Made by a program: the position numbers and the translations under genes. Below, piece after piece: positions 1 through 5,071 of a stretch of DNA of 5,071 bases. This DNA is from an uncultured archaeon (GTDB taxonomy: Archaea; Thermoproteota; Nitrososphaeria; Nitrososphaerales; CALBXV01), in contig CALBXV010000235.1 in assembly GCA_937890045.1 (NCBI GenBank), forward strand, positions 1 through 5,071, in the 5' to 3' direction. Position 1 is the first letter of the stretch, and each line of letters begins with the position of its first letter. The notes below the pieces were generated by a model. That model saw nothing but the letters and a program-made list of their open reading frames with translations. It was not told the DNA's origin and ran no database searches.

Positions 1-3000
1 ATGCCTATACCTACTCTTGAACAAATATCTAAGATGGAAGCGGCTAAGAAGCCTGTATCTAAAGCTCCATCTATATCTCCACTTGTTTTAAAAGATGATA
101 TTTTGGGAGATGATATTCTTGGATATGATCCTGTAAAAAAGAGTTTTGTTAAAGGTTCAGATATAAAAGATAAAGAAACCTATCTTAGCGAACAGGAACC
201 AGCTGAAGCTGAGGGTATTGATGAGCGTGGAGAGCCTTTTGTAGGTCATACAGCTTTTGCTGATGATGCAGCTTCTTATGATAATTTAGTTAAGATTAGA
301 TATAATACTAATGAAGATCGTTTAACAGTTAGGACTTTAGATAGTGCTGGCATGAGCCTTGCGGCTTATCCCGGGATTAAAAGACTCATTGATCCAATGC
401 GTAAGTTTAAGACCAAGGATGATTTACAGTCAGAAAAATTCAATCGTTATTATGAAGTCGTGGAAAAATTATTGGCTTCTGGGTATATAACTCCAGAGAC
501 TAAACTTAATTTAAGTGGATTAAAATTAAAAAAAGATATTAATAAGGTTAGCGATCTAATACCTGGAACGCCACCAGTAGCTAAGAAGCCTGTATTAGAA
601 GGTGAATTAGATGTAGCAGCTGAAGCTGGTAAATTAGGACTAACTGTTGATGAATATAAGGCTGCTGATAAAGCCCAAGCTGAAGAAATAGCAAGAGTTG
701 GAAAAGAAGCTCTTGATGCTGAAGGCGAGATTCTAAGAAAAACAGTTGAAATGAAACTTGGTAGGAAAGTGTCCGATGATGATTGGAAGATGGGACTATC
801 TATTGCTATGGCTGAAGCTCCTGTTGTACCTGCAGCTGTTAAGCCTACAAAAGTTACTAAAATTATATCTGGTGGTCAAGTTGGAGCTGACCTATTCGGA
901 TTAGAAGTGGGAAAAGAATTAGGTATAGAAACTGGAGGCACAGCACCTCCTGGTTTTCAAACGTCTAAAGGTAAACAAAAGGATTTATTAAAAGGATTTG
1001 GTTTAGTAGAGGGTGTGGCAGACCCTAAAATATATCCAAAACGTACTGAAAGAAATGTAGTAGACTCTGATGGTACTGTATTATTTGGAAGAGAAACATC
1101 TCCAGGTTCAAGACTGACCAAGAGATTAGCTGTAAAACATAACAAACCTTATATTGCTAATCCAACAGCTGAAGAATTATCTGTATGGTTATCTGATAAT
1201 AATATAGAGACATTAAATGTAGCTGGTAATAGAACTGCTCCATCTAGTATTAAAGATGTATTAAGAGAAGCTTTAGCAAAACCATCTGCAGTAGCACCAA
1301 GAGAACCTAGACTTCATGTAATAGGGAAAGACTACGTTGATAAAACACCAATAGCCGATAAAGAAACAATACAAAAAACTCTTATTGATATAATGGGTAA
1401 GCATGCTCCTGATGTACAAGATACATTTGTTAAAGAAATAGAGGAAAGCCCTGAAGCAGTAGGTAGATATATAGATGGTATGGTTCAGTTTATACTTGGC
1501 AAGGCAACTGAAACAACAGCTGTACATGAGCCAATACATTGGTTCGTTGAGAGAGTGCTAAGTCAAAAGGATTATGATTTCTTGCATGATAAATTTCTTA
1601 CTAATGAAGCCATGGTTGAAGCAGCTACTGATTCGTACATGAAGAAGAAAACATTTAGAGGTAAAGTAAAATCATTATTTAGAAAAATGTGGAATGCTAT
1701 AAAGAAGTTCTTAGGTATAAAACTAACTAGTGATGAAACAGTGACTGAGATGTTTGATAGAATAGGTGTTGAATTTGATTTAAGAAGACCTGCAGTCGGA
1801 AAGCCTAGATTACATAAGCCTAAAAAAGAACCAACGTCAGAGCCTATTGAAGGTGATGAATCTGAGGGTAAGAGAGAGGATGGAGTTGACTTCTCACGGG
1901 AAGTTAAACCAGAGGAGGTTAGTGAAACTGATGAAGGATACGTAGAGGCTCCAGATGAACAAGATGAGATAATTGGTAGTTTATATACTAATGATTACAG
2001 GTCTGCGTCACTTGCTAACTACCAGTCATATTTTCAAGATGTTTTTAATAGGCATATATCTAAAGCAAGCCATGCTAAAATGGTTGAAATTGCTAAGCGT
2101 AATAAGGAAGTTGGATTTACACAGTTTTTTGCAGAAGTAAGAGAGTGGGCTGTGAACTTACTGGATGAAAATGGCGTTGGTGTAGATATAAATAAAACTT
2201 ACTCACGTGAGCAACGTGCATACATGAAGCAGTTTTTTAATAAATCTAACTCACGAATTGTCTTATTTGATTCATCAACTGAAGAAAGTATAAAAAGAAC
2301 AGCTGGTGGTAGAATTTATATGGATTTATTTATAACAAGAGGAGAGAGAGGGGATATAGAGTCATTCTTATTTAACTATTCTCTTACTGAACAGTTATCA
2401 ACTAATCCAGATGGTAATAAGAAAAGACCTAGTTACTATATATCAAACTTTACTGAAGATCGCAATGGTCCACGCACAATGCATATACGAATGGATCATA
2501 TTCAAGAGGTTATGTATAATGAGAAATATGATGAAGAACGGGCTAGAGTAGCTAAGGAAAAAGGTGTTGTATATAATGTTCCAAGAGAGTTTTTATTTCC
2601 AGCTAATATTCGTATTACTGGAGATATTATTAGACAGTGGGATACGATATTTGCTGATGATTTTACTAATAAAGGTGATCCTAATTTAATGTTTGTCGCA
2701 GGTTCTAAAGGTGGTAATGATAGTGTAATATTCTTAGGCATTGTAAGCGAAGAACATAGAAATATGAATGCAGCTGGTTTTTCAGAATACTTACAAAGTG
2801 AAGTTGATAGAGGACTTGTCACACCAGATCAACGCTTAGAAGCAATAAGTGTAGCAGATGATCATTTTGGTACTAACAATCAAATTTATGGACAAATAGC
2901 TGGTAAACATGAATGGTGGAAGGGTGTTACAGGTAGTAACTATCTACTAAGACTTAGAAAAGGCAAGCCTGTAAATATAAGGGAACATTTTAATAGGTTG

Positions 3001-5071
3001 CGAGGTCCATTCTCTGAAGGCACTAATCCTCTAGGTATAAAAGATAGCAGGGTGATGTTAATAGATTCTAAAGAAGTTAAAATGAAAGTTAATGGTAAGA
3101 ATGTAGACCTATTTCCACATGCTGGTGTTTATGCTTTTGACGGTCATTTTATGTCAAGTGGTGAGTGGTTCCGTGACCTTGAGAATAACATTGGTTATCT
3201 AGGTGATCTATATGAAGCTAAAACATATATAAATGATTTAAGTGAAAACTTAGTTGACTATTTATCATTAAAAATGATGCAAATGCCACCTATTGCACCC
3301 GGTGTACAGTTTATTAAAGACGGTAAAGTTATAGCTGAAGTTAAGCTTGATAGTAGAACAGGTAGAACATACTTTGTTACACCAGAAGGAGAAAGATTTG
3401 AACATATAGGCTCTGATGAAGAAGCTAAGATGATTGCTGGTAAATATGATAGAGATGTTGAGAATGGTGGGCTAACTGAAGAAGATGGTTTTTATAAGCT
3501 TCATACATTAACATCAAAGAATTTTAAAGTATTATTTGTAGCACCTGAGCAATCTAAAACAGATGTAGCTTACCCAGTGGCTGAAGCTGAGTTAGCACTA
3601 GACAAGAACTTTATTGGCAGTGAAAAATTTGATATGTTTATAAGTAGTGTTAAAACATACTATGAAACTGTTGGTAATTCTTGGTTAGATGAATTGTATG
3701 ACTTCCATGTAGATTCAAAAAAACTTAGAGATGAATTATATAGGGACTTAAATACTGGTCAATTACCAACTGACTTACAACGATGGATAAGTATGATTGG
3801 TGAGAATGGTGAAGGGATACACATACCTCATATAACAAAACTTATATCATCTTACTTAAATAATAAGATGATAAACAATGGGATGTACAAAGTAAGAGAG
3901 AAAGGAATGGGTACATCACTCTTTGTTAAGCCTAAAGCTCATTTAAATATTGAGCAAGGTGAAGTATCTGTATCAGCCAGAAATACCACTTACTATGATA
4001 TAGTAAAAGATAAATATGAATCTGAAGGTATGGCATTTATTTCAATGATGGCTACTCTTGATAGAGAAGGTGCAGTACAAGCCATGATGGAGTTTGATGC
4101 AAAGCCACTTGAAGATCGTATTGATGAATTAAATAGGTGGCTAGAAGCTAATAAAGATAGAAATCCATTATGGGTTAAAATACATAGACAGCCAGTTACT
4201 GGTCCATCCGTTGTGTTAATGCGCAAGATGTCTCAGTTAGTATTAGGTGAACACGGTGAAGCTATATTTGTGACAGACCAAGATTTAGCTACATTACAAT
4301 CTGACAGTGATGGTGACAGGGCAGGTGTTACACACTTTAAAGATAAAGATTTAACTAACGTACAAGTAGCATGGCATGAATCAGTAGAGTTACAAAGCAG
4401 AAAGAAGATTGTATATACACAAGCGTTCTTAACTGATAAAAAACAAACTTCAATGATAAATTATAAACACTTTATTGAAGCTGTAACAGAGACAACAGTT
4501 GCATCTGGGTCACAAGGTATTGTAACTAACTCTAAAACTATTGGCAACTTACTTGCATTTAAAGAACTGAAAGTTAAGATACGTAATCCAAATAGAAATA
4601 AAAAAGGGTGGACAATAGAAGCTCGACAGCCGTCAGAAGAAGTTATAATGAGTTATGCTAGACTTGATAAAGAAGCTTTAATGGAGAATGATGGTGAGTT
4701 GTATAATCTATTAATTAAGCAGGAAGATAAGATAGTATCAACTACTGGTAAAGAACTTGCTTTAGATGAACTAGATGTCCAGAAATCGCTGTATTTAAAA
4801 ACTACACATGAGCATCAGATGTCTACACTGTTACAGTTTGCAGTTGATGATACTAAACTTGGATTACTTGCTAAAATAGGGTACGATTTTAAATTTATAA
4901 CTGACAGGATGTGGAGGAATACAGATGGGAGTAGGATAAAAAATATTACAGGTGTTAGACATGTGCTATCAGAGTTACGGCGGATATTTAATTACAGTCC
5001 TATGAGAAAAGGTATTGGTAGCGAAGGAAGGCTCACAATGGCTGAAAATATAATTGATAGTAAAGCGTTAG
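1..5071 (+). CDS. Giant polyvalent protein: cpYpsA/SLOG, zincin metallopeptidase and putative two-barrel RNA polymerase (3' partial)
   Basis: The frame is open from the ATG at base 1 to the window edge, 1690 codons without a stop, so the C-terminus lies outside. The start is the first base of the window, so no ribosome binding site can be checked and an earlier start cannot be excluded. The N-terminus (MPIPTLEQISKM) has no hydrophobic signal peptide, and no transmembrane segment is obvious anywhere. Recognisable parts in order are a cpYpsA-type SLOG domain (about 284-424), an HExxH metallopeptidase (about 455-596), an acidic linker (598-660), an unassigned region (661-1000), and a region with RNA polymerase double-psi-barrel motifs, including D1435-S-D1437-G-D1439. 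Linking several enzymes in one huge chain is typical of phage and mobile-element polyvalent proteins. Known giant single-chain phage RNA polymerases are of similar size. The reading frame is certain, the protease and SLOG calls are good, and the polymerase call is probable but divergent. Confidence 0.93.
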   Translation, partial: MPIPTLEQISKMEAAKKPVSKAPSISPLVLKDDILGDDILGYDPVKKSFVKGSDIKDKETYLSEQEPAEAEGIDERGEPFVGHTAFADDAASYDNLVKIRYNTNEDRLTVRTLDSAGMSLAAYPGIKRLIDPMRKFKTKDDLQSEKFNRYYEVVEKLLASGYITPETKLNLSGLKLKKDINKVSDLIPGTPPVAKKPVLEGELDVAAEAGKLGLTVDEYKAADKAQAEEIARVGKEALDAEGEILRKTVEMKLGRKVSDDDWKMGLSIAMAEAPVVPAAVKPTKVTKIISGGQVGADLFGLEVGKELGIETGGTAPPGFQTSKGKQKDLLKGFGLVEGVADPKIYPKRTERNVVDSDGTVLFGRETSPGSRLTKRLAVKHNKPYIANPTAEELSVWLSDNNIETLNVAGNRTAPSSIKDVLREALAKPSAVAPREPRLHVIGKDYVDKTPIADKETIQKTLIDIMGKHAPDVQDTFVKEIEESPEAVGRYIDGMVQFILGKATETTAVHEPIHWFVERVLSQKDYDFLHDKFLTNEAMVEAATDSYMKKKTFRGKVKSLFRKMWNAIKKFLGIKLTSDETVTEMFDRIGVEFDLRRPAVGKPRLHKPKKEPTSEPIEGDESEGKREDGVDFSREVKPEEVSETDEGYVEAPDEQDEIIGSLYTNDYRSASLANYQSYFQDVFNRHISKASHAKMVEIAKRNKEVGFTQFFAEVREWAVNLLDENGVGVDINKTYSREQRAYMKQFFNKSNSRIVLFDSSTEESIKRTAGGRIYMDLFITRGERGDIESFLFNYSLTEQLSTNPDGNKKRPSYYISNFTEDRNGPRTMHIRMDHIQEVMYNEKYDEERARVAKEKGVVYNVPREFLFPANIRITGDIIRQWDTIFADDFTNKGDPNLMFVAGSKGGNDSVIFLGIVSEEHRNMNAAGFSEYLQSEVDRGLVTPDQRLEAISVADDHFGTNNQIYGQIAGKHEWWKGVTGSNYLLRLRKGKPVNIREHFNRLRGPFSEGTNPLGIKDSRVMLIDSKEVKMKVNGKNVDLFPHAGVYAFDGHFMSSGEWFRDLENNIGYLGDLYEAKTYINDLSENLVDYLSLKMMQMPPIAPGVQFIKDGKVIAEVKLDSRTGRTYFVTPEGERFEHIGSDEEAKMIAGKYDRDVENGGLTEEDGFYKLHTLTSKNFKVLFVAPEQSKTDVAYPVAEAELALDKNFIGSEKFDMFISSVKTYYETVGNSWLDELYDFHVDSKKLRDELYRDLNTGQLPTDLQRWISMIGENGEGIHIPHITKLISSYLNNKMINNGMYKVREKGMGTSLFVKPKAHLNIEQGEVSVSARNTTYYDIVKDKYESEGMAFISMMATLDREGAVQAMMEFDAKPLEDRIDELNRWLEANKDRNPLWVKIHRQPVTGPSVVLMRKMSQLVLGEHGEAIFVTDQDLATLQSDSDGDRAGVTHFKDKDLTNVQVAWHESVELQSRKKIVYTQAFLTDKKQTSMINYKHFIEAVTETTVASGSQGIVTNSKTIGNLLAFKELKVKIRNPNRNKKGWTIEARQPSEEVIMSYARLDKEALMENDGELYNLLIKQEDKIVSTTGKELALDELDVQKSLYLKTTHEHQMSTLLQFAVDDTKLGLLAKIGYDFKFITDRMWRNTDGSRIKNITGVRHVLSELRRIFNYSPMRKGIGSEGRLTMAENIIDSKAL
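43..58 (+). repeat. 16-bp exact direct repeat, copy 1 (encodes AKKPV)
   Basis: The sequence gctaagaagcctgtat occurs here and again at 580-595, in the same codon phase. Both copies encode AKKPV within Pro/Lys linkers. Such recurring linker modules may arise from domain shuffling or internal duplication. Confidence 0.85.
580..595 (+). repeat. 16-bp exact direct repeat, copy 2 (encodes AKKPV)
   Basis: Second copy of the repeat at 43-58, residues 194-198, placed just before the Ala/Glu-rich helical stretch. Similarity does not extend beyond the 16 bases on either side, except by chance. Confidence 0.85.
850..1272 (+). other. cpYpsA-type SLOG nucleotide-binding domain (residues about 284-424)
   Basis: This segment has the layout of the circularly permuted YpsA family, annotated in Pfam as a putative molybdenum carrier and placed in the SLOG Rossmann-like superfamily. 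The first strand and glycine loop read KIISGGQVGAD (287-297), followed by a helix and then LGIETGGTAPPGF (307-319). YPKRTERNVVDSDGTVLF (345-362) and the glycine/serine loop SPGSRLT (367-373) follow. Next come a strand HNKPYIAN (380-387) and LNVAGNR (405-411), all in the family order. The usual GGQTGVDR loop is altered to GGQVGADL, so the ligand contacts may differ. SLOG proteins bind nucleotides or nucleotide-derived signals such as ADP-ribose-like molecules. The molybdenum name is historical and should not be taken as function. In phage polyvalent proteins the role is unproven; signal sensing or counter-defence is inference. Confidence 0.82.
1363..1788 (+). other. Zincin metallopeptidase domain, MPTase-PolyVal-like (residues about 455-596)
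   Basis: The helix ETTAVHEPIHWFVERVL (504-520) carries HEPIH at 509-513 (bases 1525-1539), a perfect HExxH zinc-protease motif with His509 and His513 as metal ligands and Glu510 as the general base. Downstream, NEAMVEAATDSY (535-546) supplies acidic residues; Glu540 is the likeliest third zinc ligand by analogy with gluzincins, with Glu536 as the alternative. The following basic amphipathic helix (552-570, FRGKVKSLF then RKMWNAIKKF) and LTSDETVTEMFDRI (575-588) resemble the conserved tail seen after this domain in phage polyvalent proteins. Likely roles are processing the polyprotein itself, maturing virion proteins, or cutting a host target after delivery. The substrate cannot be told from sequence. 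Confidence that it is a zincin is good; confidence in the exact subfamily is moderate. Confidence 0.8.
1792..1980 (+). other. Acidic, probably disordered linker (residues about 598-660)
   Basis: The segment opens with a short basic Pro/Lys part (KPRLHKPKKEP, 601-611). It then becomes dominated by Glu, Asp, Ser, Gly and Pro up to about residue 656, with very few hydrophobic residues. It separates the protease from the rest of the chain and is the most likely flexible hinge. It could be a site of proteolytic release, though no cleavage motif can be named. Confidence 0.6.
1981..3000 (+). other. Unassigned region between protease and polymerase-like core (residues 661-1000)
   Basis: This part looks folded: it mixes hydrophobic and aromatic residues at normal density and has no long low-complexity tract. 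The first part (about 664-750) is mostly helical, with segments such as YQSYFQDVF and FFAEVREWAVNLL. The middle (about 754-835) has strand-like stretches (RIVLFDSS, GRIYMDLFI, RTMHIRM). Residues 893-915 include NLMFVAGSKGGNDSVIFLG, a strand-loop-strand pattern. EWWKGVTGSNYLLRLRKGK (971-989) immediately precedes the first barrel-like segment. By position it may be the N-terminal arm of the polymerase, which is poorly conserved in two-barrel enzymes. I recognise no motif that proves this. Confidence 0.4.
3001..3600 (+). other. Putative first double-psi beta-barrel (beta-like, DPBB1) of RNA polymerase
   Basis: Residues 1014-1053 read as strand-rich sequence leading to VYAFDGHFMSS (1043-1053; DG at bases 3139-3144). 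This resembles the DG-x-G-x-(I/M)-S block at the start of the first barrel in eukaryotic RNA-silencing polymerases and their phage relatives. An insertion of mainly helical character follows (1055-1095). After it come beta-rich sequence and a lysine-containing stretch with KLHTLTSKNFKVLFV (1166-1180) and PEQSKTD (1182-1188). Two-barrel RNA polymerases have conserved lysines in DPBB1 that contact the nucleotide or RNA; K1173, K1176 and K1186 are candidates. The assignment depends mainly on finding DPBB2 downstream in the right order. Alone it would be weak. Confidence 0.5.
3601..4140 (+). other. Connector between the two barrel-like segments, mostly helical (residues 1201-1380)
   Basis: The region is rich in charged helical stretches, for example WLDELYDFHVDSKKLRDELY (1228-1247) and PLEDRIDELNRWLEANKD (1369-1386). 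Between them lies HIPHITKLISSYL (1274-1286). It places about 390 residues between the DPBB1 DG and the DxDGD motif, a distance plausible for two-barrel polymerases, in which the barrels are joined by helices. No catalytic motif of its own is visible. Confidence 0.4.
4141..4380 (+). other. Putative second double-psi beta-barrel (beta-prime-like, DPBB2) with DxDGD active site
   Basis: NPLWVKIHRQPVTGPSVV (1388-1405) is followed by LVLGEHGEAIFVTDQDLA (1413-1430) and LQSDSDGDRAGVTHF (1432-1446). The order matches the cellular beta-prime subunit block in which an RxP segment, a short G-x-x-I-x-L strand and NADFDGDQMAVH occur in succession. Asp1435, Asp1437 and Asp1439 (bases 4303-4317) would hold the catalytic magnesium ions of RNA synthesis. 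The residue after the first Asp is Ser, where cellular enzymes have Phe. HRQP stands where beta-prime has R-A-P. The metal-binding reading is well supported by the combination of motifs and their spacing. Whether the enzyme uses a DNA or RNA template cannot be read from this. Confidence 0.72.
4381..5071 (+). other. Polymerase region downstream of the active site, truncated by window edge
   Basis: After the DxDGD barrel come TTVASGSQGIVTNSKTIGN (1498-1516) and TLLQFAVDDTKLGLLAKIG (1609-1627). The first is placed like the G-x-(I/V)-(S/T)-N block that follows the active site in RNA-silencing polymerases. The second contains AVDDTKLG, close to the AVD-x-x-K-x-G signature of the same superfamily. 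These two added matches in the correct order raise the polymerase call above a lone DxDGD hit. Bridge-helix or trigger-loop equivalents would be expected here or beyond, but I cannot place them residue by residue. The frame is still open at residue 1690, so the C-terminal part is missing. Confidence 0.58.

What the first reader, a model, noticed from the sequence alone, without database searches (positions are those of the whole stretch)
3001..5071. Divergent single-chain two-barrel RNA polymerase in a giant polyprotein
Four blocks occur in the order expected for a two-barrel RNA polymerase: AFDGHFMSS (1045-1053), HRQP (1395-1398) with SDSDGD (1434-1439), SQGIVTN (1504-1510) and AVDDTKLG (1614-1621). 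The blocks resemble YonO-like and crAss-like phage polymerases and eukaryotic RNA-silencing polymerases more than cellular beta/beta-prime, because both barrels are on one chain. Homology searches at ordinary sensitivity might miss it.
Basis: partly seen in the sequence, partly recalled or inferred. Interest (0 to 1): 0.85.

Follow-up and report, generated by a model that had tools for sequence, protein, structure and literature searches.

The report
Phage polyprotein carrying two-barrel RNA polymerase
The window is part of a giant protein of an uncultured bacterial virus that very probably contains a complete, very divergent RNA polymerase of the same deep family as cellular and RNA-silencing polymerases, most likely carried in the virus particle to start transcription of the viral genome.

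Summary
All blocks lie where stated. No Pfam, PHROGs or NCBIfam polymerase model matches the window. AlphaFold models of a relative (pLDDT 80.7) and of window residues 861-1690 (pLDDT 82.5) both have the crAss-like phage virion RNA polymerase 6vr4 as best PDB match (E 3.4e-9, 5.2e-10), followed by QDE-1, then RDR2 and cellular beta'. Relatives lie on tailed-phage contigs; in G005 the gene is next to last in the terminase-portal strand block. An HExxH motif lies upstream in 33 of 37 proteins (the rest look like fragments), and cargo domains vary. Best reading: a new family of single-chain two-barrel RNA polymerase inside a polyvalent virion protein, probably injected to transcribe early genes. 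Precedents are crAss gp66 and P23-45 gp96. Activity, virion location and Asp-Lys geometry were not tested. The second barrel lysine is missing in the window.

The parts
1..5070 (+). Part of one giant multidomain phage protein, open at both ends (longer relatives 2500-3150 aa)
   Evidence: relatives
862..1242 (+). cpYpsA (circularly permuted YpsA, SLOG family) cargo domain, aa 288-414
   Evidence: Pfam PF12694 E 9.4e-21
1525..1539 (+). HEPIH, HExxH motif of a zincin-like metallopeptidase, aa 509-513; the zincin fold itself was not tested
   Evidence: HExxH found in 33 of 37 proteins; the 4 without (P0004, P0005, P0019, P0021) are short and by their length seem to start downstream of it
2581..5070 (+). 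Two-barrel RNA polymerase module, aa 861-1690; about 270 C-terminal residues lie beyond the window
   Evidence: AlphaFold model pLDDT 82.5, pTM 0.80; Foldseek 6vr4 E 5.2e-10
3046..3540 (+). First (beta-like) barrel region, aa about 1016-1180; limits inferred from the strands of the model
   Evidence: strands of model residues 156-320; whole-chain matches to 6vr4, QDE-1, RDR2
3133..3159 (+). AFDGHFMSS block, aa 1045-1053, D1047-G1048 invariant
   Evidence: 34 of 34; loop pLDDT below 50 in the window model
3271..3273 (+). K1091, invariant lysine set against the first lysine of beta KMAGRHGNKG by order and spacing (not measured in 3D); the residue 8 further on is Lys in 22 of 34 rows but Ala here
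3886..4407 (+). Second (beta'-like) catalytic barrel, aa about 1296-1469
4183..4194 (+). HRQP, aa 1395-1398 (R1396, P1398 invariant), counterpart of beta' RAPTLH and gp66 YRIP
   Evidence: in register by HHalign
4303..4317 (+). DSDGD, aa 1435-1439, predicted Mg-binding triad
   Evidence: three Asp invariant in 34 of 34
4462..4560 (+). Bridge-helix candidate, aa 1488-1520, includes SQGIVTN
   Evidence: helices 628-641 and 644-660 of the model, inside the span aligned to beta' 343-933; assignment inferred
4792..4878 (+). Trigger-loop candidate, aa 1598-1626, includes KTTHEH and AVDDTKLG
   Evidence: model 738-766, the end of the span aligned to beta' up to residue 933; assignment inferred

Best explanation
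The window encodes most of a single-chain, DNA-dependent RNA polymerase of the two-barrel class, built into a polyvalent virion protein of an uncultured tailed phage. Shown: invariant catalytic motifs, a confident model that matches two-barrel polymerases, and, in relatives, a place at the distal end of the late gene block together with an HExxH motif and variable cargo domains on the same chain. Inferred: the protein is packaged, enters the cell with the DNA, may be cut by the zincin, and the polymerase uses D1435/D1437/D1439-bound Mg to transcribe the first phage genes before or instead of host RNA polymerase, while the cargo domains disarm the host. I put the polymerase class alone at about 0.93 and the virion role at about 0.7.
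Against: No activity, promoter or virion proteome was tested. Sequence profiles do not link it significantly to gp66 or YonO: P 0.0073 and 0.0014 for pieces cut around the motif, against reversed controls down to 0.0069. The second barrel lysine is absent in 12 of 34 rows, the window among them. TM-scores to the best PDB chains are low (0.3-0.4). VIA-align lists for the window's model hold no single-chain two-barrel enzyme in the 50 rows shown. The window's own contig and neighbours are unknown; the context comes from other clades (about 25-28% identical for G001, G002, G005). In G004 and G006, read as linear contigs, the polyprotein block and the terminase block are on the same strand but separated by opposite-strand genes; they become one block only if the contig ends join, which was shown for G005 only.
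Confidence: 0.8

Rival explanations
1. It is a two-barrel polymerase but not a virion enzyme: made after infection and used for late or replicative transcription, like YonO.
For: Position in the late block alone does not prove packaging; YonO, an SPbeta RNAP, transcribes late phage genes (PMC5467207, passages). The upstream neighbours match no PHROG.
Against: Fusion to an HExxH motif and polyvalent cargo domains; no member seen is clearly free-standing, the short ones being possible fragments; virion fusions in P23-45, crAss-like and N4 phages.
Confidence: 0.15
2. It uses RNA templates (QDE-1 or RDR2-like RNA-dependent polymerase), for example to copy host or phage RNA.
For: QDE-1 and RDR2 are among the best structural matches.
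Against: The top Foldseek match is the DNA-dependent virion enzyme 6vr4, and carriers encode dsDNA-phage terminase, portal and DnaB helicase. The fold does not tell template choice.
Confidence: 0.06
3. A catalytically dead or altered two-barrel protein, kept for DNA binding or virion structure, at least where the second barrel lysine is lost.
For: The residue 8 after K1091 is Lys in 22 of 34 but Glu, Asp, His or Ala in 12 of 34, among them the window.
Against: The Asp triad, R1396, P1398 and K1091 stay invariant in the same rows.
Confidence: 0.08
4. Chance resemblance of motifs in an unrelated phage protein.
For: DxDxD by itself is expected 0.6 times in shuffles of this protein.
Against: Invariance in 34 of 34 rows and 36 of 36 PDB matches at E <= 1e-3 being two-barrel polymerases.
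Confidence: 0.03

Closest known systems
crAss-like phage phi14:2 virion RNA polymerase gp66 (PDB 6vr4)
   Same: Single chain with both barrels, large virion protein of a tailed phage, YRIP ... DFDID block matching HRQP ... DSDGD; best PDB match of both models. In crAss-like cr50_1 the CDS that carries it is annotated as a helicase; helicase domains occur on the chain in one clade here too.
   Different: 11% identity in both matches; no significant profile link. tblastn in INPHARED: none for the window, one record in the zincin region for P0008, 458 records for P0006, of which the 20 shown match its NADAR or zincin stretch.
Thermus phage P23-45 gp96 tape-measure-fused vRNAP and gp64 (related PDB chains P74 gp62, P32 gp64)
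   Same: Two-barrel RNAP on a giant virion protein with a metallopeptidase (PMC10770324, passages); P74 gp62 and P32 gp64 among the matches of the relative's model.
   Different: There the RNAP is N-terminal on a tail tape measure; here it is C-terminal, behind the HExxH motif. Whether this protein is a tape measure was not tested.
N4 virion RNA polymerase gp50 (Schitoviridae)
   Same: Giant virion polymerase with an HExxH domain at the distal end of the late block, after a 150-aa and a 644-aa virion protein (PMC5512222, passages); in G004 189-, 590- and 263-aa proteins come just before. Terminase resembles N4 gp68 (phmmer 7e-16, 1.1e-13, 3.6e-10 in three contigs).
   Different: N4 gp50 is T7-like, not two-barrel (PMC5512222, passages, and recalled). 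None of the other 14 N4 late proteins tested, portal and capsid included, has a convincing pairwise match.
YonO of phage SPbeta; QDE-1 and RDR2
   Same: Single-chain two-barrel polymerases; QDE-1 and RDR2 match over much of the model.
   Different: About 9-12% identity to QDE-1 and RDR2; not fused to virion or polyvalent proteins (recalled).
Polyvalent proteins (Iyer et al. 2017, PMC5512222)
   Same: cpYpsA, NADAR, ART-PolyVal, SAP, helicase domains and HExxH motif in changing combinations on one phage protein.
   Different: The RNAP modules named in the passages I read are N4-like virion RNAPs; those passages mention no two-barrel RNAP module, and the term double-psi does not occur in the main text.

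Membership tests
Two-barrel (double-psi) RNA polymerases | DxDxD metal-binding triad conserved | tested here: met
   34 of 34; also in 6 of 6 further relatives by motif search
Two-barrel (double-psi) RNA polymerases | Triad sits in a beta'-type double-psi barrel | tested here: met
Two-barrel (double-psi) RNA polymerases | Second, beta-type barrel with catalytic lysines on the same active site | tested here: inconclusive
   K1091 34 of 34, Lys at +8 only 22 of 34; barrel supported by whole-chain matches only
Two-barrel (double-psi) RNA polymerases | Bridge helix and trigger loop | tested here: inconclusive
   Helices in the right order within a span aligned to beta' 343-933; no residue-level check
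Two-barrel (double-psi) RNA polymerases | RNA synthesis | not testable with these tools
   needs enzyme assay
crAss gp66 family | Significant sequence or profile similarity | tested here: inconclusive
   HHalign P 0.018 (core) and 0.0073 (cut piece); the pair gp66-YonO, both known two-barrel enzymes, gives P 0.37 and 0.014, so the test lacks power
crAss gp66 family | Carried by Crassvirales | tested here: inconclusive
   tblastn of G006 terminase: 397 records, 15 shown, first row Escherichia phage Pollock, a member of Schitoviridae; other rows not looked up; the window's own phage is unknown
N4-like virion RNA polymerase | T7-like (PF00940 type) polymerase domain | tested here: inconclusive
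   No PF00940 in 8 of 8 contigs, but the control genomes were silent too; N4 gp50 finds nothing convincing in G004-G006 by phmmer, best E 0.13. The polymerase found is of the other class
Polyvalent virion proteins | Several unrelated effector domains on one phage protein near late genes | tested here: met
   (late-gene context from relatives only)
Polyvalent virion proteins | Packaged and injected | not testable with these tools
   needs virion proteomics

The most novel reading that the evidence does not exclude
These phages resemble N4 in terminase and in late-block layout (small and 590-640-aa proteins, then the giant HExxH-bearing polymerase protein near the end), but the giant protein carries a cellular-type two-barrel polymerase where N4 carries a T7-type one. 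If so, two unrelated polymerase folds have been plugged into the same ejected-protein slot, and the window's clade catalyses with only one of the two barrel lysines.
Probability: 0.3. Interest if true: 0.75.

Novelty: new variant of a known kind. Interest (0 to 1): 0.62.

Why it matters
It adds a family (42 protein ids, some near-duplicates, in three searches, plus eight IMG/VR contigs) of single-chain two-barrel polymerases that the family libraries tried here do not name. Such single-chain enzymes bear on how the two-subunit cellular enzyme and the RNA-silencing polymerases arose. The variable cargo domains beside a likely injected polymerase make a testable picture of what a phage delivers at the start of infection.

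Tried and rejected
Homology to known phages: tblastn of window aa 701-1690 in INPHARED found nothing; P0006 matched 458 records, the 20 shown in its NADAR or zincin stretch; P0008 matched one record in its zincin region. Four related-loci scans of viral contigs and one of genome contigs found no relative. The DGDWDGDK DNA pattern did (8 loci on 8 contigs); a second pattern hit three of the same contigs, giving one new locus. The first pattern in genome-contig hit one planctomycete MAG contig that has no tblastn match to the family, so I took it as chance. A window-clade pattern in viral contigs found nothing.

PDB sequence search with A2 gave 20 matches up to E 10, the best three shown being low-complexity, and none named a phage or two-barrel polymerase. 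HHalign against gp66, YonO and the Fpv20 piece was too weak to use as proof. VIA-align: for the relative's model RDR2 is first and P74 gp62 fourth, most other rows are beta'-type chains, and 6vr4 and QDE-1 are not among the 50 rows although Foldseek ranks them first; for the window's model 6vr4, QDE-1 and RDR2 are all absent from the 50 rows.

A full N4 kinship was considered and not kept: only terminase (and portal through a broad PHROG) is related; the relatives' head protein has no INPHARED match and N4's belongs to another PHROG. Absence of a T7-like RNAP is not shown, since the control was silent. The conserved C-terminal Cys as a mere by-product of the next gene's overlapping start codon was rejected: the codon is kept in G002, G004 and L021, where it is not part of that start; in G006 this depends on which start is used.

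Literature: the searches listed no paper that I could recognise as describing this family. The P23-45 paper mentions a survey of viral two-barrel RNAPs in a supplement I could not read, so the family may already be listed there.
Full report
What is there. The window is one open frame of 1690 codons that runs off the 3' end. Most homologues in the second search are 2500-2980 residues long; one in another clade has 3147. So the window shows the middle of the protein: a Pro/Lys-rich start, a cpYpsA domain, an HExxH motif at 509, and from about 861 the polymerase module.

Observation. Alignment A2 (34 rows: the window and 33 of the 36 homologues then in hand; P0016, P0017 and P0035 were left out as likely duplicates of P0015 or a match over 17% only) keeps D1047, G1048, K1091, R1396, P1398, D1435, D1437, D1439, N1510 and D1616 in 34 of 34. 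The glycine of DxDGD is Ile in two rows, giving DYDID, close to the DFDID of crAss gp66. Six of six further proteins from the third search also carry R-Q-P and D-W/F-D-G-D.

K1091 is invariant. In many relatives the block reads K-H-M-(Q/M)-F-x-x-x-K, the same spacing as K-M-A-G-R-H-G-N-K in E. coli beta. The second position is Lys in 22, Glu in 8, Asp in 2, His in 1 and Ala in 1 (the window) of 34 rows. That the two lysines correspond to those of beta is inferred from order and spacing.

Against viral models (BFVD), three unnamed viral proteins match along most of the length (A0A516M7V2 TM 0.76, 17% identity; the others 0.66), then other unnamed and crAss-like proteins at TM about 0.2-0.43. 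So relatives seem to exist in UniProt without a name in the tables at hand.

Sequence-only links to known families are weak: HHalign puts HRQP...DSDGD in register with gp66 and YonO, P 0.0073 and 0.0014, but reversed controls reach 0.0069, and the pieces were cut around the motif. The known two-barrel pair gp66 and YonO does no better with each other (P 0.37, 0.014), in line with the statement in PMC10770324 that many of these families lack significant similarity beyond the DxDxD region (section read).

Context. A DNA pattern for DGDWDGDK found 8 loci on 8 IMG/VR contigs and a second pattern one more locus on one of them; all 9 loci carry relatives, about 25-100% identical to family members. 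Of the 8 contigs, 5 have the terminase of phrog_38 and 5 the portal of phrog_156. In G005 the contig's last and first frames are 100% identical to residues 1-1657 and 1518-3147 of one protein, P0040, and the contig ends overlap by 422 bases at 99.5% (an exact-match test had missed it). Read around that join, the listed frames from about 21.4 kb, terminase and portal included, run on one strand into the polyprotein and a 1244-residue protein, after which the strand changes. In G004 and G006 terminase, portal and polyprotein share a strand, but in the linear contigs opposite-strand genes lie between; no end join was found for G006 by exact match, and G004 was not tested. G006 also has a major head protein match (E 2.4e-5) and tail-fibre matches on that strand. 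A ~1250-residue protein without a convincing family match directly follows in G001, G002 (cut by the locus), G004, G005 and G006. DnaB helicase (G004, G005) and methyltransferase (G006) genes are on the other strand. Terminase is distantly like N4's, and N4's own late block ends with gp52-gp51-gp50, but no other N4 late protein tested has a convincing match.

Cargo. Of 18 proteins scanned together (17 with the polymerase and the helicase half of G005), SAP was found in 4, cpYpsA in 3, Rho_N in 2, UvrD_C_2 in 2, and ART-PolyVal, AAA_30 helicase and a 2OG-Fe oxygenase in 1 each; none had an RNAP model at E <= 1e-3. NADAR is inserted in P0006 and DUF7831 in P0007. P0040 has helicase, HExxH and DxDxD in one 3147-residue chain. 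HExxH was found upstream of the polymerase in 33 of 37 proteins; the other 4 are short and seem to start downstream of it. Of the six further proteins 4 have it, and P0037 and P0039, both short, have not; P0039 matches the C-terminal part of P0041 at 88%.

Mechanism. From the papers: crAss-like RNAP and P23-45 gp96 are virion polymerases that transcribe the first genes (passages of PMC7886860, PMC10770324); the N4 giant protein carries polymerase and HExxH domain and is transferred with DNA (passages of PMC5512222). By anatomy the present protein fits the same role: ejected with the genome, perhaps cut by its own zincin, starting phage transcription while cargo domains act on host NAD/ADP-ribose or nucleic acid defences. 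None of these steps was tested here.

Verdict. A real family, unnamed in the libraries searched, of single-chain two-barrel polymerases in polyvalent phage proteins; a new variant of a known kind.

Noticed in passing
C-termini of relatives (not in the window); Cys lies within the last four residues in 33 of 36 C-termini (..CG..CN..CK..C; exceptions P0033, P0034, P0036), also where the next gene's start codon does not overlap it. Role unknown.
   Followed up: partly
P0007 residues about 2078-2194; P0006 residues about 1535-1666: DUF7831 (E 2e-28) is inserted shortly after the catalytic DYDID in P0007, and NADAR (E 2e-21) near the start of the polymerase module in P0006; the module seems to tolerate whole-domain insertions.
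   Followed up: no
L030:13308-18280 and L028:1-4893 (contig G005): The contig's end and start frames are the two halves of one 3147-aa helicase-HExxH-polymerase protein (P0040, 100%), and the contig ends overlap by 422 bases at 99.5%, so G005 may be a nearly complete genome of about 57.9 kb.
   Followed up: partly
L018, L019, L028, L032, L035, gene after the polymerase: A conserved ~1250-residue protein (20-63% identity among five contigs) with no convincing Pfam or PHROG match directly follows the polymerase gene; possibly a partner subunit or another ejected protein.
   Followed up: partly
L012 (Flavobacterium phage Fpv20, structural protein): A phage structural protein carries a gp66-like polymerase with DYDID and, further on, a stretch similar to the zincin region of P0006 (27%); an annotated phage with a similar combination in another order.
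   Followed up: partly
G005:C1:24388-26265: The phrog_38 match on G005 is reported with in-frame stops inside, though an intact 522-residue frame lies there; not examined further.
   Followed up: no
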